Assembly: GCF_026041215.1 (NCBI RefSeq)
Contig: NZ_JAPEIQ010000004.1
Coordinates: forward strand, 124,001 to 188,000
Origin: Hoyosella sp. YIM 151337
GTDB lineage: Bacteria > Actinomycetota > Actinomycetes > Mycobacteriales > Mycobacteriaceae
Direction: 5' to 3'
Length of the DNA: 64,000 bases
Every line of letters begins with the position of its first letter. The stretch's first letter is position 1. The notes beneath the pieces are model-generated. The model searched no databases and was not told where the DNA came from. It was given only the letters and a program-made list of their open reading frames with translations. Positions 11,301 through 37,772 of this stretch are shown one piece after another. Both the position numbers and the translations under genes were made by a program.

Positions 11301-13464
11301 TGTCGAGACGGAATACGCGCGCCCGCACTGGCAGTTCTCGCACGACGTCGAAACCCTGGCCCGCGAATTCTCCGGCCTGCGCCGTCACACGTTCTAGGCA
11401 AGAGTCGACAAGTTCGAGCTCAGTTTCGATCTGATGCATCTCCAGCACGACCTGCGAGGGCTGGCCGGCGAACTCCGGAAATACCGTGCGCAGCGACTCG
11501 TGGCGCAACAGCACGTCGCGGAACGCTGCTTGCATCGCGGGCACGTCAAGGGGTCCGCGCAGGCGCAGGACCATCGGGATGTTGTATGCCGCTGAAGCCG
11601 GATCGAACTGGTTGAGGAACCACATCCGCCGCTGTGCGAGCGAAAGCGGAATGTGTGCGGGCCGCGGCTGCGGGAGCAACGGAGTTCGGCCCGTGCCTTC
11701 GGCAGCATCTTCGGCACGTGCAGCGAGTTCTTCAACCGTGGGCGCCTCGAAAAGCACACGCATAATCAGGTCCGTACCCATCGCCTCGTTGATGCGGGCA
11801 ATGGCGCGCGTACCCATGAGGGAGTTCCCGCCGAGTTCGAAGAATGAATCGCGAATGCTGACGTCGGAGAGACCGAGGATCTCCCCGAAGATCGCGGCGA
11901 CCTTCTTCTCGGAATCTGTGGTCGGCGGGATGATCTCGCGGTCCCCGCTCAGATCAGGCATCGGCAGCGCACGCCGATCGACCTTTCCTTGCGGAGTCAG
12001 CGGCACCTCGTCGATCGTGACAACAACACTCGGGACCATGTAGTTCGGCAGACTCTGTGCGGCATGGCGGAGCAGTTCGGCCGTATCGAGCTGAACATCC
12101 TCAGCCGGCTGCACATACGCAACCAGGATGTTTTCACCTGCGGGTGACTCGTGAGCGAGAGTGGCCGCGAATTGCACCGCATCGTGATGGCGCAGCACCG
12201 CGTCGATTTCGCCGAGTTCGATGCGATAACCGCGCACCTTGACCTGGAAGTCGGAGCGCCCGATGTAGTCGAGGTGCTCATCGCTCGTCCACCGCACCAG
12301 ATCACCGGTGCGGTACATTCGCTCCCCCGCGTCACCGTAAGGGTTCGCCACGAAACGATCCGCAGTCAGCCCTAGTCGGTCGTGATAGCCGCGCGCGAGC
12401 CCCGGACCGCCGATGTACAGCTCACCCGTTGTGCCGATGGGGACAGGCTTAAGGCGTGAATCCAGAACCATCGCGGTGGTACCGCGAATCGGTCCCCCGA
12501 TCGTCACCGGGGCGCCAGGCTGCATCGGTCCGGCGATACTCGCCACGATCGTGGTTTCCGTCGGACCGTACCCGTTGTACATTTCGCGGCCCGGCGCCCA
12601 TTGCGACACCAGTTGCGGTGGGCACGCCTCGCCACCCACGATGACAACACGGACATCTGAAAGCCCAGCCGGATCCACTGTGGCCAGGGCGGCAGGGGTG
12701 ACGAACGCGTGCGTGACGGCGTGCTCCCGCAGCAAATCAGCCAGTTCGGCGCCGCCATACACGCTGGTCGGCGCGATCACCATCGCAGCCCCGGATGGTA
12801 TCGCGAGGAGCAATTCCAGTACTGACGCGTCGAAGATCGGCGACGCGAAATGCAGGGTGCGGGCCGACGCATCGATCGAAAAACGTTCCCGCTGCTCCTG
12901 CGCGAACGCGGCAAGGCCAGAGTGGGTGACAACGACACCCTTCGGCAGACCCGTCGATCCAGAGGTATAGATCATGTACGCGGGATTCTCCGGCCGCAGG
13001 ACGCCGAGGCGATCGAGGTAGGAGATTGGGGCAGGAGGATGTGTTTTCAGCTCCGCCTTGACGGCCTCATCGTCGAGTTCGATCCACGCGATAGTGTTAG
13101 GCAGCGTCGCCCTGGTCTCGCTGGTGGTGAGTCCGATGGTCGCGCCGGAATCGGAAACGATGTGGGCGATGCGGCCTTCCGGCGCTGACGGGTCCACCGG
13201 CACGTATGCGGCCCCGCTTTTCGCGATTGCCCACAAAGCAACGACTGATTCAATCGACCGGGACATCCCGATGATCACGAATGACTCGGGGCCCACGCCA
13301 CGCGATATCAGCAGCCGCGCGAGGCGTGAGGAACGCTTGTCCAGCGCCGCATACGAGACAGTCTTCTCCCCCATGATGAGCGCCGGACCGGTGGGGTTGG
13401 CCTCCACCGCCGTCGCCATCAGCTGCGGAAGCAACTGCACACGCACGTTCGCGCCAGAGCTCAT
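1..13464 (-). CDS. NRPS2: non-ribosomal peptide synthetase, 3' end beyond the left edge
   Basis: Open frame of 4488 codons from ATG 13464 with no stop before base 1. GGAAGG at 13469-13474 sits 4 nt before the ATG. Domain order by core motifs: A6 (P-loop near residue 165), T6 (GGNS, ~545), C7 (HHIAADG, ~733), A7 (~1220), T7 (GGDS, ~1602), E7 (HHTVMDG, ~1800), C8 (HHILMDG, ~2288), A8 (~2760), T8 (GGDS, ~3140), E8 (HHLAVDG, ~3340), C9 (HHVLLDG, ~3837), A9 (~4310, cut). The protein begins directly with an adenylation domain and has no condensation domain of its own. It must receive its peptide from C6 at the end of NRPS1, whose stop is 111 bp upstream, so the two genes are almost surely cotranscribed. 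No thioesterase is in view. Family assignment is certain; the product is unknown. Confidence 0.97.
2380..7015 (-). other. NRPS2 module 8: C(DCL)-A-T-E (D-residue)
   Basis: The C domain has [11 protein letters not shown], as expected after an epimerase. A8 has [11 protein letters not shown] and TGD. The pocket code by eye is D-A-F-F-A-G-L-I-W, unassigned, with a hydrophobic pocket. The carrier is GGDSIVS. E8 has [10 protein letters not shown] and EGHGREE, so it should be active. Two D-residues in a row (positions 7 and 8) are predicted. Confidence 0.82.
7015..11690 (-). other. NRPS2 module 7: C-A-T-E (D-residue, same code as module 1)
   Basis: The C domain has HHIAADG. A7 shares with A1 the [10 protein letters not shown] variant and exactly the same nine pocket residues by eye (D-L-K-N-F-G-S-D-V), so both modules should load the same substrate. 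The carrier is GGDSIMS. E7 has [10 protein letters not shown] and EGHGREE, so it should be active. Module 7 looks like a copy of the A-T-E part of module 1. Confidence 0.83.
11690..13464 (-). other. NRPS2 module 6b: A-T (live half of the split module)
   Basis: A6 begins within 15 residues of the start codon and has [32 protein letters not shown] and the C-terminal GKVDRR Lys. The pocket code by eye is D-A-L-F-I-G-G-I-V, related to A2 and unassigned. T6 is GGNSL with no epimerase. Together with C6 on NRPS1 it completes module 6 in trans. Confidence 0.82.
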
Positions 13465-13575
13465 CGAACCTTCCCATCCCAACTAGACGGCACCACAAGG
13501 GATACCGGATCGCTGTCAGCGACTGTTACATCGTAGGCACTTCGCTGGTGCGCGTTTCCGACTCGGCACATCCGA

Positions 13576-14660
13576 TCAGCGAGATTCCGCCTGACCCCGA
13601 TCGAGGTATTCGATGACCCCGCCAGTGCCCCACCGCACTCGCACGCCAGTCCGGTACATGCGTTCACCGTGGGTATCGGTCGGATCCGGGACGAAACGCG
13701 CCGCTGTCCGCGCGGTTGCGCTCACGTAACCCCGCCCAAGCCCATTGCCAGCGAGATAAAGCTCACCTTCGCCACCTTCGGTGACTGGGCGCAGCGAGTC
13801 GTCGAGAACGACGATCTTGGCTCCTGGCACTGGTTCGCCCAGTGCTGGAGCACCATTCGCGATCGTGCTTGCGGGTGCCCCGGCAGACCCGATGATGCGC
13901 AACGCGGCACTCGGAGCGGCCACCTCGACCGGGGTGTGACGCCAGTCAGGTCCCTCCGCGGCGCCGCCGATGGCGAGCGACGCAGATGACGATGCCGCAA
14001 GCACCAGACGCAGCACGGAGTCGTGGACGTCAGCAAAATCGCTGAGTGACACGGGCTTTTCCGCAGCGGCACCGAGCCGTGCACGCAACGCGGTAACTGC
14101 TCCAGCGAGGGCACGGTGTGTTACCGCCACGGCACTCACACCCTCTGAGTCTGTGCTCAGCGCGATGTAGGCCGTGTTGTCAAGACGGACCTGCCCGAGC
14201 CGGTCATAGAACGACACCGGCGCCGGGGACATGGTCTTGAGTTGTGCCTTGACGGACTCGTCATCCACTTCGATCCATGTGCCGAGTTCTGGCAACCCTT
14301 CGCGCAGCTCCACGGCGGTGACGCCAATCGATGCGCCGATTGTGGCCAGCGCGCGAGCTGACTCGCCGGAGACCGACTGTGGATCGAGCAGGACGATCGC
14401 AGCACCGGTTTTAGCGACCGCCCACTGCGCCACCACTGCCTGGATCGACGGCGGCAGCGCCACGACTACGGAGGCCTCTGGACCAGCACCGTTCCTGATC
14501 AGCAGACGCGCGAGACGCGACGACCGTTTGTCGAGATTCATGTATGAGAGCGGCTTCTCACCGGTTAGCACTGCAGCGCCGGCCGGGTTTGCTTCAGCAG
14601 CATTGGCAAACACTTGTGCGAGCGTCTCGCTCGGTGGCGCCTCCCCACCTGTGAGCACCC
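13576..14660 (-). other. Degenerate, truncated adenylation domain (A6*) ending NRPS1
   Basis: About 350 residues that start as a normal A domain ([17 protein letters not shown]) but have lost its catalytic motifs. The ATP P-loop SGSTGxPKG reads [10 protein letters not shown], the YGPTE motif is absent, TGD reads TGV, and the chain stops right after [10 protein letters not shown], where GRxDxQVKxRG should follow. No A8-A10 part and no catalytic Lys remain. It resembles the live A6 domain of NRPS2 in detail ([16 protein letters not shown] against [16 protein letters not shown]). It is in frame with NRPS1 and ends the protein, so it is translated but cannot adenylate. A structural or docking role is possible; a dying duplicate is the simpler reading. 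Confidence 0.85.
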
Positions 14661-17600
14661 CTGCCGCAGCGGTTGCCGCGCTCAAAGCCCCGGCGCCACC
14701 GCGCACGATCGAACCGCGTTCGGACGCATCGGCAATCTCGATATCGCCGATGATCGCGTCCGCATCGGCGGTGACCGCGTGAATGACGCGTTCCAGCCGT
14801 GCTCCGAGCCTTTCGATCGATACCGCATCGAAGATGTCGGCCCGATACACGAATCTGGCTGTGAGTCCCGCCGGTTGCCCGTCATCACTGAAGTGCTGTT
14901 CGACACCGAGCAGGAGGTCAAACTTCGCGGACTCGTCACCTTCGAGCGGTGACACGGTGAGGCCGGCGAGCTGCAGCTTGCGCTGCTGCGGGTTCATCAG
15001 GGAGAGCACGACCTGAACGAGCGGAGCGTGCGCGGTGGAGCGCTGCGGCTTCAGGACGTCGACAAGCTGCTCGAACGGGACGTCCGCGTGCTCGTACGCG
15101 CCGAGATCGACGTGCCGCACGTGCTGAAGCAGATCGGTGAAGGCGGCCGCGCTGTCGACCTGCGTCCGGAGTACCAGAGTGTTGACGAACATGCCGATCA
15201 AATTGTCGAGCGCAGCCTCGCCGCGGCCTGCCACTGGGGTGCCAATCGCAATATCGCGGGTGCCGGTGACGCGAGCGAGCACGACAGCGAGGGCCGCGTG
15301 CAGCACCATGAACATCGAGCCGCTGTGATGGTCCGCGAGCCGCACCAATCCGCGGTGCTCGTCGGCCCCTAGCTCGACCGTGACGTGGCCCGCCTCGGAG
15401 CCCGCAACGGCAGGGCGTGGCCGGTCGGTCGGGAGGTCCAGCAGTTCTGGGAGTCCCGCGAGCGATTCCTTCCAGTACGCAATCTGGCGGGCCGCCAGCG
15501 AGTCCGGATCTGACGGTTCGCCCAGCACCTCTCGCTGCCACAATGCGAAATCTGCGTACTGGACATCCAGCGGCGTCCATGCAGGCGCTTCGCCAGCAAC
15601 GCGCGCCGAATAGGCAATCATCACGTCGCGTGCCATCGGGCCCATCGATTCGCCGTCACCGATGATGTGGTGCACGACGATCGCGAGCACATGTTCCTGC
15701 TCGGCTATCTGGAAAAGCGCCCCCCGCAGCGGCACTTCCTTCGTCACGTCGAAGCCCTTGGCGACGAACGCGGTGACGTGGTCGACGATGTCTGACTCCG
15801 GCACGGCGCGCGGCGCCAAGTCGACAGCGACCGCGCGCGGCGGCACAATCTCCTGCCGCGGACCAAGGTCTGCGTCTGGGAATCGTGTGCGCAACGACTC
15901 ATGCCGCGCGAGTACATCGTTCACTGCAGCTTGCAGCGCGGCCGTGTCCAGCTCTCCTGAAAGACGCAGAACCAGCGGCATGTTGTACGCCGCAGAACCT
16001 GGATCGATGCGGTTGAGCAGCCACATACGCTGCTGCGCGAGCGACAGCGGAATGTGCGCCGGACGCGGCGAGACGGGCGCGAGTGGGTGCGCGGCGCGGG
16101 CATGCGACTGCGCATGCTCGACTCGCTCAGCCAGTGCGGCGACCGTCGGCGCGTCAAACAGATCCTGCACACGCACCCGCACGCCCAGCGCTGAACTGAT
16201 TCGTGCGATCGCTTTCATCGCCGCCAGCGAACTGCCGCCAAGGTCGAAGAAGGAGGCGTCCGTGCTCACGCGATCTGCACCGAGAAGTTCGGCGTAGATG
16301 TCCGCGATGATCTCCTCGATCGGGTTTTGCGGCGCCTGGAAGGGCCCGGACTCGGCGTCGAAGGCCGGCACCGGCAGCGCTTTGCGATCGAGTTTGCCGT
16401 TCGCACTCAGCGGGAACTCGTCCAGGACAACGACCGCGGCAGGCACCATGTAGTCCGGAAGGTGCGCGGCGACCGCTGCGCGAATCTCGCCGCCATCTGT
16501 TGCGCTCCCCGCCGGCACTGTGACATACCCAATAAGCTGGTCACCGCGGTGCTCGTCTTTACGGAGCACAACCACAGCGCCCGTGACGCCGGGAAAGTCG
16601 CGCAGCGCCGTTTCGATTTCGCCGAGTTCGATGCGCTGACCGCGCAGCTTCACCTGGAAATCGGTTCGGCCGAGGTACTCGAGTGTCCCGTCTGGCAGCC
16701 ACCGCACCAGATCACCGGTGCGGTACATACGCTCGCCGGGAGCGCCGAACGGGTCAGCGACGAATCTGTCGGCGGTGAGATCTGGCCGGTGGACATACCC
16801 GCGGGCCAGCAAGGGGCCGGCGACGTACAGTTCGCCCGGCACCCCGACGGGAGTCAAGCGCAGCGCTGAATCGAGGACGAGAACTTGCGTTCCCGGCACG
16901 GCACGGCCGATCGGCACCGATTTCACGCCCTGCGAACCTTCGCGCCACAAATGCGTGTGGGTGCGGATCGTGGCCTCTGCCGGACCGTACACGTTGTATA
17001 GCCCAGCAGTCGTTGCGCGGCTGAACCGGCGAGCCAGCGCAGCGGAAAGTGCTTCACCCCCGCTGAACACGATGCGCAGGTGCTCCAGCCCCTCCCCGGC
17101 AGTCACCCCGAGGTACACCTCGAGCATTGACGGCACAAAGTGTGTCACCGTGATCTTCTGCGCGGCGATAACCTCGGCCAGGTACTCGGGATCGCGATGG
17201 CCGCCCGGCTTCGCGAAAACGATGCGAGCGCCGGTTTGCAACGGCCAGAACAGCTCGGCAACTGAGGGATCGAAGGTGACTGATGTCTTCTGCAGTACCG
17301 CATCCGTGGTCCCGATCGGGAAGTCGTGCTGATGCCACGCGATGGAGTACGCCAAAGCATGCCGACTGACTTCGATGCCCTTCGGGCGTCCCGTGGAGCC
17401 TGAGGTGAACAGGATGTACGCGGTGTTCGCAGGGTGCGTTCCCGCCGGTCGTGCCGGGTCAGTCAGCGGCTCACTGGAATACCCCGAGAGATCGAGCGCA
17501 TCGATCCGGACTTCCTGGCACGCCATCTCCGGCAACTGCGGTGACGTTTCCGCGGTCGTCAAGACGAGGTGCGGTTCCGCTGCCCCGAGCATGTAGCTAA

Positions 17601-23600: not shown

Positions 23601-26600
23601 GCCCATCTGGCAGCGCGATCACGAGGCGCGCACCGATTTCGAGGGGCCAGAAAAACTCCCACACCGACACGTCGAACGTGAACGGGGTCTTCTGCAGCAC
23701 GACGTCGCGGGGGGTCAGCTGGTACTCGGCCTGCATCCACAACAGCCGGTTGACGATCGCCCGGTGGCTTACCGCCACGCCCTTGGGACGCCCAGTCGAA
23801 CCGGACGTATAGATCACGTAAGCGGTGTTGTCGGTATGGATCGGCCCGCGCCGCTCCCTATCAGTGATCGGTTCCGTGTCGTAGCCAGAAAGGTCGAGTC
23901 GGTCGATCTCCAGGGAATCCACGGGGCTTTGCATCGCAACGCGGTCACGGCTGGTGGTAACGACACACACGGGTTCGGCTGAACTCAGCACCCAGGCGAT
24001 GCGGTCTGTGGGGTGATCCGGGTCCACTGGGACGTAGGCACCACCGGCTTTCACGATGGCGTACATTCCCACGACCATTTCCAGGGAGCGCCGCGCAACC
24101 AGCGCGACCCGCGACTCCGGGCCGACCCCGCGGTCAATCAGCAGCCGCGCGACCTGGTTTGCCCACTCGTCGAGTTCCCGGTAGGTGAGTTCGCGCTTGC
24201 GATAGACGAGCGCCACCGCGTCGGGCGTTTTCGAGACTTGCTCTTCGAACAGCGCGACGAGATTCGAGTCCGGCACCCAGTGCGTTGTGTCGTTCCAGCC
24301 CGATGCTTCGTGCGTCCCTGCACCAATCTGCGGCAGCAGGCTCGCTGCACCGATGGTTCCGAGGGCGAGTTCCGCGTCACCAGCGACCGCGTCGAGAACC
24401 GGCAGCAAACGGTCCATCAACTGCATTGCGGCGGGCTCGCTGGCTGCGCCCGCAGCGTACGTCAGCAGGGCTAGCGCGTAGTGACCTTCGCGCCGCACCC
24501 GCTGATCACCCAGCCGCGCGCCGATGTCGCGGGCACGGGACGTCACCTCCGCATAGGTGATGTCCTGGCCTTCCACCGTGAATGCCGTGGCGCCGGGGCG
24601 CTCGTGGGCAGCGGCTTCAAGGCGATCTTCAAGGCCGCCTGCCGCTGCCTGGCGGCTGGTGAAGAGGTTCTGCTCATGCTCGCTGAGAATGTTGACGTCA
24701 CCGATCGGAACATCCGTGTCCGTGCACGCCGCGTCGAGCAGTCGCGTGTAGCGGTCGGTGTACTGCTCGATCGTTTCCCGCTTGAACAGGTCGGTGGCGT
24801 AGGTGAGCAGCGCCTTGATTCCTGCGGGCTGGCCGTCTTCGTCGTGGGTTTCTTCCAGCGTCAGCAGCAGATCGTATTTCGCGGTGTTGACGTCGATCGC
24901 ATCCGCAATCACTTCCAGTCCCGCGATGTCGAAGCGGACCGGGTCGGTGTTCTGGAAGGCGAGCATTACCTGGAAAAGCGGCGAGTGGTCAGCGGCCCGC
25001 TCGGCACCCACCTCACGCACCACGCGCTCGAATGGCACTTCCGCGTGCTGGAACGCTGCGAGATCGGTTTCCCGTGCCCGGGCGATAAGGTCAGCGAACG
25101 TCGCATCCGATTCGACGTGGGTTCGCAGCACCAGCGTGTTCACGAACATACCTGCGAGCCGCTCGAGTGTCGCTTCCCCGCGCCCGGCGATCGGTGTCCC
25201 GATGGTGATGTCCGGCGTCCCTGAGAGGCGCGACAGCAGCGCCGCGAAGGCGGCGTGCGTCACCATGAAAACCGTGGCACCACCGCGCTTCGCCACTTCT
25301 TCGATGCGCCGGTGCAGGTCAGCGTCCAAGTGGAACGCTACCGATTCCCCGCGCAGGGACTGCTCCGGCGGACGCTGATAATCGGTGGGCAGCGGCAGGA
25401 GTCCAGGGGCCCCAGCAAGCGTATGTGCCCAGTACGCGAGCTGGCGCGACACTACGCTCTTTGGGTCGGTGTCCTCGCCGAGAACGGAACGCTGCCAAAT
25501 CGCGAAGTCCGCGTACTGGATTCCCAGGGGGTCCCAGCGCGGGGCCCTTCCGTCGGTGCGGGAAGCATACGCGGTCATCAGGTCTGTCGCGAGTGGTGCC
25601 ATCGATGCGCCATCAGCCGCGATGTGGTGCATCACCACGGCCAGCACGTGGCGCTCCGGGCTGAGCTGGAACAGCGTGACGCGGATCGGGATGTCCTTTG
25701 TCACGTCGAAACCACGTGTCGCGAACGACCCAGTCGCGGTGTCGAGTTCGGCAGCGCTCACCTGCATAACAGGGATCGTGCCGACAGCCTCCTCGGGGGC
25801 GAGGATGCGCTGATACGGCCCTTCCACATCCGATGGGAAGACGGTTCGCAGCGCCTCATGCCGCGACAGCACATCATTCATGGCCGCTTGCAACGCGTCT
25901 GCGTCGAGCGTGCCGGTCAGCTCCAGCGAGAATGCGATGTTGTAGACCGCGGAGGTGGGGTCAAACTGGTTGATAAACCACATTCCCTGCTGTGCGAGGG
26001 AAAGCGGAATACGTTCCGGTCGTGGTCCAGCTGACAGTGCCGGGCGCCCACCTTCGCCACCACTGGTGGGCGCGGCCGCCGCCCGCTCGGCTAGTTCCGC
26101 TACGGTCGGCTTCTCGAACACCTCACGGACACCGAGCTGGCAGCCGAACGCATCGTTGATACGGGCGGTCACCTTCGTCGCCGTCAGCGAGTTACCACCC
26201 AGCTCGAAGAAACTGTCGTGGATTCCGGCGCGTTCGATGCCGAGCACGTCCGCGAAGATTTCTGACACCGTCGTCTCAGCCGGGGTGCGGGGGCCAACGT
26301 AGGCCTCCTGCCCTGCACCGAAATCAGGTTCGGGGAGCCGCCGCCGGTCCAGCTTGCCGTTGACGGTCAGCGGGATCTCGTCGAGCACGATCAGCGCGGA
26401 CGGCACCATATGGGATGGCAGGCTCGCAGCGACGTGTCCGGAGAGTTCGGCCGTGTCGATGTCCCGGCCGGAGACCGGCTTCACATAGGCAACCAGCCGG
26501 GTGATGTTGTTCGGTCCGGTGTGCCCGATCGTCACCGCGAAATCCACGTTCGGATGTGTGCTGAGTGCCGCGTCGATCTCACCGAGCTCGATGCGGAAAC

Positions 26601-34294: not shown

Positions 34295-35485
34295 TCACTT
34301 GACGATCTTGGTGACTCGGCCGGCGCCGACGGTGCGGCCACCTTCGCGGATAGCGAAGCGCAGGCCCTCGTCCATGGCGACTGGCTGGATCAGCTTGACG
34401 CTCATCTCGGTGTTGTCGCCCGGCATGACCATCTCGGTGCCCTCAGGAAGGGTAACGACACCGGTCACGTCCGTGGTACGGAAGTAGAACTGCGGACGGT
34501 AGTTGTTGAAGAACGGCGTGTGACGGCCACCCTCGTCCTTGGACAGGATGTAGGCCTGGCCCTCGAACTCCGTGTGCGGGGTGGTCGAACCCGGCTTGAC
34601 AACAACCTGGCCACGCTCGACGTCTTCGCGCTTGATACCGCGGAGCAGCAGACCAACGTTGTCGCCAGCCTCGCCGTAGTCGAGCAGCTTGCGGAACATC
34701 TCGATGCCGGTGACGGTGGTCTTGGTGGACTTCTCGCGGATGCCGACGATCTCGACTTCCTCGTTCACATTGACCTTGCCGCGCTCGATACGACCGGTAA
34801 CAACAGTGCCACGACCGGTGATGGTGAACACGTCCTCGATCGGCATGAGGAACGGCTTGTCGGTCTCACGAACCGGGTCCGGAATGGACTCGTCAACAGC
34901 GTTCATGAGCTCGAGGATCTTGCCGGTCCACTCCGGGTCACCTTCGAGGGCCTTGAGGCCGGAGACGCGGACGACGGGGGCTTCCTCGTCGAATTCCTGC
35001 GCAGCGAGAAGCTCACGGACCTCCATCTCGACGAGCTCGAGGATTTCCTCGTCGTCGACCATGTCGGCCTTGTTCAGCGCCACCAGGATGTAAGGAACGC
35101 CAACCTGACGAGCCAGCAGCACGTGCTCACGTGTCTGCGGCATCGGGCCGTCGGTGGCAGCAACCACGAGGATTGCACCATCCATCTGCGCTGCGCCGGT
35201 AATCATGTTCTTGATGTAGTCGGCGTGGCCGGGTGCGTCGACGTGCGCGTAGTGGCGCTTTTCCGTCTGGTACTCGACGTGCGAGATGTTGATGGTGATA
35301 CCGCGCTGCTTCTCTTCAGGAGCCTTGTCGATCTCATCGAACGCAAAGCTCTTGTTCAGCTCTGGGTACGTATCGCTCAGAACCTTGGTGATAGCAGCGG
35401 TGAGCGTGGTCTTGCCGTGGTCAACGTGACCGATGGTGCCGATGTTGACGTGCGGCTTCGTCCGCTCGAACTTCGCCTTCGCCAC
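34295..35485 (-). CDS. tuf: Elongation factor Tu
   Basis: GTPase that carries aminoacyl-tRNA to the ribosome. 396 aa, the normal length. G1 GHVDHGKT, G3 DAPGHADY and G4 NKAD are visible, then the two beta-barrel domains, ending GRVTKIVK. Start GTG 35485 is set by AGGAGGA at 35492-35498, 6 nt upstream; the frame continues to 35584 but the extra residues are not EF-Tu-like. Last gene of the str operon, 169 bp after fusA, with its own strong terminator. The gap to fusA may hold an internal promoter but none is clear. Confidence 0.99.
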
Positions 35486-35654
35486 TTGATGTCCTCCTGG
35501 ACTAATTAGTGCTTGCAGTTTGCAGCAGTGCGGTTGTTCTAACGAGGTGGTCGTGCCGATAACCCCGAGGCCGGGGTCCCCCAAGGGGTTCCCAGAGAAG
35601 CGGCTCCTAGGAAGGCTACCCGGAGATACTACCTATGGGCGGCGCTTGGTGAAC

Positions 35655-37772
<2,118 letters not shown>

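What the first reader, a model, noticed from the sequence alone, without database searches (positions are those of the whole stretch)
11690..16075. Split NRPS module with a dead A domain facing its live copy
NRPS1 ends C6 then an adenylation domain without a P-loop, YGPTE motif, TGD Asp or the whole C-terminal part. NRPS2, 111 bp on, starts with an intact A-T. Dead and live domains match closely ([16 protein letters not shown] against [16 protein letters not shown]; both [12 protein letters not shown]). This looks like a tandem duplication in which the copy fused to C6 decayed while the live one moved to a new protein. The dead domain may be kept as a C-A platform or docking surface for NRPS2, a way to split an assembly line without classical docking domains.
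Basis: partly seen in the sequence, partly recalled or inferred. Interest (0 to 1): 0.85.

Follow-up and report, generated by a model that had tools for sequence, protein, structure and literature searches.

The report
Dead domain joining two peptide synthetases
A giant peptide-making enzyme is cut into two proteins inside one module, and the first protein ends in a catalytically dead copy of the next protein's first working domain; similar dead end-domains turn up in most Nocardia genomes searched, so dead domains may serve there as connectors.

Summary
NRPS1 (13576-33846, minus strand) ends C6-A*. A* is 350 aa of an adenylation core with no P-loop, YGPTE, TGD Asp, C-terminal subdomain or carrier. 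NRPS2 starts 111 bp on with an intact A6-T6. It is no sequencing error: split plus A* occur in 6 of 7 genomes of Hoyosella and Lolliginicoccus; the seventh has C6-A6-T6 fused, without A*. A* lies in the A6 clade (support 99), is under purifying selection (dN/dS 0.14-0.31), loses catalytic residues and keeps structural ones. AlphaFold gives an intact A-core fold, but not the canonical C-A packing that a control (C4-A4) shows.

New here: similar dead-A ends match in 139 of 150 Nocardia genomes and occur in seven further genera. 50 of 50 inspected loci end in a dead A; with five named Nocardia loci, 51 of 55 are followed directly by a gene starting with a live A. Those A* are acidic (median -22), the partner tails Arg-rich (median +7). 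Hoyosella A* is no closer to them than live A domains are, so it may be a separate origin.

Best reading: A* is a retained non-catalytic docking or adaptor domain. Binding is inferred, not shown.

The parts
14710..16056 (-). C6, last condensation domain of NRPS1, HHIIGDG motif present
   Evidence: Pfam PF00668 8.9e-91; sequence
14629..14709 (-). C6-A* linker, longer than e.g. the C4-A4 linker; also long in the fused species G063
   Evidence: sequence; AlphaFold pLDDT 32-51 in its middle, about 90 in the C4-A4 linker
13579..14628 (-). A*: dead adenylation core, ends just before the A8 hinge; no P-loop, A5, TGD Asp, C-terminal subdomain or carrier
   Evidence: fold matches A-domain cores (8www: Z 37.3, rmsd 2.5 over 341)
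14497..14541 (-). A* segment [15 protein letters not shown], invariant in 6 of 6 orthologs
14167..14250 (-). A* segment KAQLK..P.P.SFYDR.G..R..NTAY, its spelled residues invariant in 6 of 6 orthologs
13576..13578 (-). TGA stop of NRPS1
13465..13575 (-). 111 bp intergenic, with a Shine-Dalgarno-like GGGAAGG at 13469-13475
13435..13464 (-). NRPS2 N-terminus [10 protein letters not shown]: the A domain starts directly after it
   Evidence: sequence
11983..13413 (-). A6, intact adenylation domain of NRPS2
   Evidence: Pfam AMP-binding 2.6e-79 and AMP-binding_C 1.5e-10; motifs intact
11716..11904 (-). T6 carrier domain (FFELGGNSL)
   Evidence: Pfam PP-binding 1.8e-14

Best explanation
Module 6 is split between two proteins: C6 on NRPS1, A6-T6 on NRPS2. 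The C-terminal A* of NRPS1 is a pseudo-adenylation domain: a copy of the A6 core that lost catalysis and its mobile C-terminal subdomain plus carrier, and is kept as a folded, non-catalytic terminal domain. Its most likely job is to hold NRPS2 to NRPS1 (docking or adaptor), so that the in-trans T6 can reach the acceptor site of C6. Since A* is not predicted to sit in the canonical A position on C6, live A6 could take that place while A* acts as tether. Shown: dead, folded (model), constrained, tied to the split in the seven genomes compared, and a junction of the same kind recurs widely. Inferred: physical binding, its interface, and that A6 docks on C6.
For: Conserved split plus A* in 6 of 7 genomes of two genera, absent where fused. 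dN/dS of A* 0.24, 0.14, 0.31 in three species pairs, against 0.05, 0.07, 0.17 for C6. Of 85 near-invariant A-domain columns, 29 are kept and 28 lost in all six A*; losses concentrate in catalytic motifs. Intact A-core fold in the model. Residues fixed in A* but not in A6, in both genera (Q129, F140, Y141). Similar junctions elsewhere: 50 of 50 loci end in a dead A; 51 of 55 have a live A starting the next frame; P-loop pattern in 0 of 55 A* and 50 of 51 partners; of 12 further loci 12 end in a dead A and 8 are followed directly by a live A-first gene (at least two repeat loci counted before). 139 of 150 Nocardia genomes match at E<=1e-70. Nocardia-type A* acidic (median -22), partner tails basic (median +7); A* more acidic than the partner in 50 of 51. 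E12 is in 6 of 6 A* and 5 of 5 A6 but 0 of 26 other A domains (A2, A3, A4, A8), and in all 53 distinct Nocardia-type A* and all 54 live A compared (49 partners, 5 A6).
Against: No binding was tested and no complex was modelled. Hoyosella/Lolliginicoccus A* changes two to four times faster at the protein level (dN) than C6. The acid/base pattern is weak there: A* -6 to -15 over 339-352 aa, A6 -6 to -8 over 270 aa, tail [10 protein letters not shown]. These A* do not score above live A domains on the Nocardia A* profile (86-104 against 141-165 for A6), so the two cannot be called one family and may need separate explanations. Pairing is not exclusive: three Nocardia loci (L064, L069, L083) have an A-first gene with nearly the same Arg-rich tail after a thioesterase-ended gene, while the A* of those genomes has its own A-first neighbour; basic tails also occur on A-first genes with another signature (SPLFGQLL). 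Some dead-A ends have no A-first gene found nearby (L174, L180, L192; L202-L205). The fused species manages without A*; 11 of 150 Nocardia genomes gave no match at 1e-70.
Confidence: 0.55

Rival explanations
1. A* is a structural cap: C6 needs an A-core neighbour for folding or stability, so the dead core is kept, without any role in recruiting NRPS2.
For: A* keeps the A-core fold and A-fold columns; the C-A linker and interface form a stable platform in NRPS structures (passage in PMC8097286).
Against: The C6-A* model has no canonical C-A packing (pTM 0.59, rmsd 15-19), while control C4-A4 does (pTM 0.85, rmsd 3.5-4.9 to the best 15 rows). Nocardia-type A* end still earlier (median 270 aa) yet persist.
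Confidence: 0.18
2. A* is a relic of a tandem duplication, decaying slowly because loss of the terminal part is only mildly harmful.
For: Faster evolution than live domains; internal deletions; module 3 of the same protein carries another degenerate A fragment.
Against: dN/dS below 1 in all pairs computed (0.14-0.31; 0.10-0.87 over 255 Nocardia-type pairs, the high values between genera); no stop or frame loss in six orthologs; A*-specific conserved residues in 53 distinct A* of eight genera; matches in 139 of 150 Nocardia genomes.
Confidence: 0.14
3. A* and the split control expression: two proteins with separate starts are easier to make than one 11,000-aa chain, and A* is a by-product of how the gene was cut.
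For: A 111-185 bp intergenic region in all six genomes with A*, similar in sequence within Hoyosella; the fused species has an 11,190-aa open frame.
Against: Does not explain retention of a folded 270-350 aa dead domain; in one Nocardia locus the genes nearly overlap (L078/L154, gap -8).
Confidence: 0.08
4. A* binds another factor, for example the single MbtH-like protein of the genome.
For: All seven genomes searched have one MbtH-like match, away from the cluster.
Against: No evidence that A* keeps an MbtH interface; not tested.
Confidence: 0.05

Closest known systems
PCP-like adaptor domain BN of TomB (tomaymycin NRPS), PMC11186497
   Same: A PCP-like extra domain at a subunit terminus recruits the partner subunit's loaded carrier (abstract and passages read).
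   Different: PCP fold of about 75 residues at an N-terminus, recruiting the donor carrier; here an A-core of 260-350 residues at a C-terminus after the C domain. Binding shown there, not here.
Inactive A domain complemented in trans by a stand-alone A-T (albicidin, cystobactamid; also ramoplanin, enduracidin), review PMC8949500
   Same: Dead A domain in the assembly line and live A-T on another protein (passages read).
   Different: Here the A6-T6 protein is the downstream synthetase itself, and NRPS1 has no T after the dead A, so the acceptor carrier must come in trans.
Partial A domains: glidonin A* (PMC10587159) and fungal dA of SidD/Nps6 (PMC10192304)
   Same: Truncated, non-activating A domains kept in an NRPS (passages read).
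   Different: Those lack the N-terminal part (glidonin A* keeps only Asub), inside one protein; A* here keeps the N-terminal core and ends the protein.
NRPS docking domains (COM domains and others), review PMC9113145
   Same: Would do the same job, subunit pairing (passages read).
   Different: Described as short terminal regions; none of the passages seen is an A-fold domain between C and A.
Acore as recombination unit, hinge at A8, PMC8097286
   Same: A* is an Acore unit, so its birth fits this known exchange unit (passages read).
   Different: The passages describe exchange of Acore, not a surplus dead copy at a subunit end.

Membership tests
NRPS adenylation domain (AMP-binding, PF00501) | A-core sequence and fold | tested here: met
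   PF00501 4.1e-25; 8www Z 37.3, rmsd 2.5 over 341 aligned
NRPS adenylation domain (AMP-binding, PF00501) | ATP and catalytic motifs (P-loop, A5, TGD Asp) | tested here: not met
   A5, TGD Asp and most P-loop columns lost in all six orthologs; P-loop pattern in 0 of 55 Nocardia-type A*
NRPS adenylation domain (AMP-binding, PF00501) | C-terminal subdomain carrying the A10 Lys | tested here: not met
   no PF13193 in A*; ends at model position 396-399 of 503
Inactive A domain complemented in trans (albicidin type) | dead A inside C-A-T, the T on the same protein | tested here: not met
   no PP-binding after A*; protein ends
Nocardia-type A* (defined here) | scores above live A domains on the profile of five Nocardia A* | tested here: not met
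   Hoyosella/Lolliginicoccus A* 86-104 bits, A6 141-165, live partners 104-178, A* of seven other genera 182-264
Nocardia-type A* (defined here) | junction C-A* at a protein end, next gene starting with live A | tested here: met
   window; 51 of 55 loci
Classical NRPS docking domain (COM, beta-hairpin, helical) | dedicated short docking element at both termini | tested here: inconclusive
   NRPS1 ends in an A-fold, NRPS2 has about 10 residues before A6; docking-domain profiles were not searched separately
Docking or adaptor domain by function | binds the partner subunit | not testable with these tools
   needs a binding assay or a complex model

The most novel reading that the evidence does not exclude
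Pseudo-adenylation domains are a new class of NRPS subunit connector. Dead A cores at the C-terminus of a synthetase (C-A*) pair with the live A domain, and in Nocardia-type pairs with an Arg-rich tail, at the N-terminus of the next synthetase. This splits a module between C and A. The type arose at least twice, after different C domains, in mycolic-acid actinobacteria, and makes many A-first synthetases there elongation proteins rather than initiation proteins.
Probability: 0.43. Interest if true: 0.86.

Novelty: new variant of a known kind. Interest (0 to 1): 0.72.

Why it matters
Collinearity predictions usually treat a synthetase that starts with A-T as the initiation module (recalled). 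If C-A* // A-T is a standing junction, gene order and products of many Nocardia and related clusters are misread. It would also add an A-fold to the known docking devices, give a natural way to cut a module between C and A for engineering, and be a further case of a dead catalytic domain reused as a connector. The claim is directly testable with two purified proteins.

Tried and rejected
Assembly error: rejected (same end in six genomes, different stops and frames). A* as a decayed A2: rejected (p-AU 0.00027). Fused gene ancestral, or re-fused: not decided. In favour of ancestral, A2 (support 67), A3 (86), C3 and C4 of the fused species G063 fall outside the others; against, its C5 and C6 group with its own genus (0.86, 0.87) and its flanking fusA/tuf proteins are 96-99% identical to two congeners. 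Common origin of Hoyosella and Nocardia A*: not decided (p-AU 0.45, 0.51, 0.51; the 75-support grouping sits on long branches); the C domains before A* are in different clades. Nocardia A* as a copy of its own partner A: not shown (31-37% identity to the partner, 34-39% to Hoyosella A6). First genome-contig scan with the single window A* found nothing. Literature: ten full-text searches gave no description of a C-terminal dead A core at a C/A split in what I saw (listings, and passages of the papers opened); term searches inside one Nocardia and two Rhodococcus NRPS surveys found no mention. Only open-access papers are held, so this is weak evidence of novelty.

Rows dropped: for the AlphaFold alignment 36 of 42 C-A hits plus the window were used; L065, L096 and L100 were left out as near copies, and L126, L074 and L078 because their frames ended early. 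Those three later proved to be Nocardia A*. The control alignment held the same 37 rows plus C4-A4. Of the matches, 50 loci were inspected: the 30 best returned (all g23) and 20 that I chose to cover the other genera (19 from seven genera, 1 from g23). Two of 55 A* are sequence duplicates, leaving 53. The 1e-50 and 1e-52 cut-offs lie near what live partner A domains can reach (up to 178 bits on this profile), so matches close to the cut-off are not each proven A*; in large searches only the best few candidates per genome were scored. Names of the seven other genera are not known (unnamed handles).
Full report
OBSERVATION. The window holds a 6756-aa NRPS1 (13576-33846, minus strand) and the start of NRPS2 (ATG at 13464; open frame of 5015 aa in the genome). 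NRPS1 ends with a condensation domain (C6) followed by 350 residues that match only AMP-binding; NRPS2 begins, 111 bp later, with AMP-binding, AMP-binding_C and PP-binding. The last 350 residues (A*) stop at position 399 of a 503-column A-domain model made from the cluster's own A domains, that is, just before the A8 hinge (motif names recalled). They lack most of the P-loop, the A5 block, the TGD Asp and everything after.

CONSERVATION. The A* query finds orthologs in 3 of 3 Hoyosella genomes, the window's own included (the other two 67-69% identical), and in two genomes of another genus at the first threshold. A profile of six A* gives 6 of 401 family genomes at E<=1e-66, all six at 1e-156 or lower. 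In the second genus 3 of 4 genomes have it; the fourth, G063, has one 11,190-aa open frame in which C6 runs straight into an intact A6-T6. Contig lengths identify G001 as Hoyosella altamirensis, G022 as Lolliginicoccus levis, G047 as L. lacisalsi and G079 as Hoyosella rhizosphaerae. A* ends at model position 396-399, with TGA, TAG or TAA, 111-185 bp before NRPS2; NRPS2 is in another frame in three of the six. So A* goes with the split: present in 6 of 6 split genomes, absent in the one fused.

ORIGIN. In a tree of 62 A-core sequences A* forms one clade (100) inside the A6 clade (99). Moving A* to the A2 clade is rejected (p-AU 0.00027), but whether A* branches before, after or with the fused species' A6 is undecided. 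A* is a complete Acore unit, and Acore is the usual exchange unit in NRPS recombination (PMC8097286, passages read). G063 carries a divergent NRPS allele at the same place after tuf, with flanking fusA and tuf proteins 96-99% identical to L. levis and L. lacisalsi. Its A2 and A3 fall outside the others with supports 67 and 86, likewise C3 and C4, but its C5 and C6 group with its own genus. Polarity of split and fusion is therefore open.

SELECTION. Nei-Gojobori dN/dS of A* is 0.24 (G001/G002), 0.14 (G000/G001, dS saturating) and 0.31 (G022/G047), against 0.05, 0.07 and 0.17 for C6, and 0.05 and 0.085 for A6 in the two pairs where A6 was available: relaxed, but clearly purifying. Of 85 columns near-invariant in 31 live A domains, 29 are kept and 28 lost in all six A*; the losses concentrate in the ATP-binding and catalytic motifs. 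Two segments stand out: [15 protein letters not shown] and KAQLK..P.P.SFYDR.G..R..NTAY. Q5, E12, K34, K131 and P135 are shared by all six A* and all five A6 (K34, K131 and P135, like Q5 and E12, in 5 of 5 A6) and by none of 26 other A domains compared (A2, A3, A4, A8); Q129, F140 and Y141 are fixed in A* but absent from the five A6.

STRUCTURE. AlphaFold2 on C6-A* (37 sequences) gives pLDDT 83 and pTM 0.59, with the linker down to pLDDT 32-51. A* matches solved A cores (8www Z 37.3, rmsd 2.5 over 341 residues). The two domains do not adopt the arrangement of any C-A structure listed (TM 0.44-0.52, rmsd 15-19 in rows covering both domains). The control, C4-A4 of the same protein with the same rows added, gives pTM 0.85 and rmsd 3.5-4.9 to the 15 best rows (teixobactin and LgrA), and up to 7.7 in other C-A rows. 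This speaks against the canonical C-A platform, with the reservation that the long linker may contribute.

WIDER OCCURRENCE. While checking loci fetched for other purposes, I found five Nocardia loci where a protein ends C-A* and the next gene starts with a live A. A profile of these five A* hits 75 of 401 family genomes at E<=1e-52 in 8 of 31 genera, 139 of 150 Nocardia genomes at E<=1e-70, 12 of 14 genomes of genus g10 at 1e-50, and, in 348 genomes drawn from the order (80 genera), 10, all of the same family. Genus g23 is Nocardia: A* of two of its genomes are identical to those of the named loci L063 and L078, and two of its matches have the coordinates found in the genomes of L062 and L064. 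In 50 of 50 inspected loci the upstream frame ends in the degenerate A. With the five named loci, 51 of 55 have a live A starting the next frame; by genus that is Nocardia and five of the seven others. Of the four others, L182 has a second degenerate A and then a live A in the next frame; L174, L180 and L192 have none found in the stretch. P-loop pattern: 0 of 55 A*, 50 of 51 partners. Twelve further loci from seven Nocardia genomes (at least L194 and L197 repeat loci already seen) all end in a dead A; in 8 the next frame starts with a live A behind an Arg-rich tail, in 4 (L202-L205, a shorter A*) none lies in the stretch. In three of these genomes another A-first gene with nearly the same tail follows a thioesterase-ended gene (L064, L069, L083), so tail and A* are not strictly paired. 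dN/dS over 255 pairs has median 0.35 for A* (range 0.10-0.87) and 0.23 for the first 300 residues of the partner; pairs are not independent and many have high dS.

SIGNATURES. Nocardia-type A* are acidic (median net charge -22, median 270 aa) and the partner tails Arg-rich (median +7, for example MTRPARVRPTRTRRPRVTTLPQLM); A* is more acidic than the partner in 50 of 51 over 250 residues. Fifty-three distinct A* share residues rare in the live A compared (D13, P17, G50, E175, G182). Hoyosella A* lack the strong charge pattern and do not score above live A domains on the Nocardia profile, and the C domains before A* differ, so I treat them as a separate, possibly independent case of the same kind of junction.

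MECHANISM. A plausible job for a folded, dead, constrained domain exactly where a module is cut between C and A, and absent where the cut is absent, is to connect the two proteins. Step by step: T5 on NRPS1 donates at C6; A6 on NRPS2 charges T6; A* holds NRPS2 so that T6 can enter the acceptor side of C6 (all inferred). The contact may involve A*-A pairing, the basic tail, or A6 taking the canonical place on C6 that A* appears to leave free. None of this binding is shown.

NOVELTY. Dead A domains, trans-acting A-T proteins and adaptor domains made from a carrier fold are each known. A C-terminal Acore as the end piece of a C/A split, recurrent across a family, was not found in ten searches of open-access papers. 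I rate it a new variant of a known kind.

Noticed in passing
24268-24636, minus strand, NRPS1 module 3: Between C3 and the intact A3 lies a scar: about 60 residues of an A-domain start, then a stretch that by eye reads like a C-domain end. The A fragment (model positions about 3-58) is found in all 7 genomes compared, also in the fused one.
   Followed up: partly
   Followed up: no
L202-L205 (Nocardia genomes): A further, shorter dead-A end (about 243 residues) after a different C domain, with no A-first gene in the stretch fetched.
   Followed up: partly
   Followed up: partly
13465-13575: The intergenic region is similar within Hoyosella and holds TACGATGTAAC; Lolliginicoccus has TAGCATGTAAA in its gap. 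Possibly a -10-like element, so NRPS2 may have its own promoter (by eye).
   Followed up: no
34295-37772: The NRPS cluster sits directly after fusA and tuf; matching neighbours are found in all seven genomes compared.
   Followed up: partly
NRPS2 module 7 (A7): A7 of the window is only 45% identical to A7 of H. altamirensis although A6 is 82%: likely A-domain exchange, hence perhaps a different residue at that position.
   Followed up: no
L079, L080, L082, L088, L091, L094, L095, L099, L104, L105, L117: A second group of Nocardia A-first synthetases with basic tails and another signature (PLF.QLLTAAVE), with no A* found just upstream.
   Followed up: no
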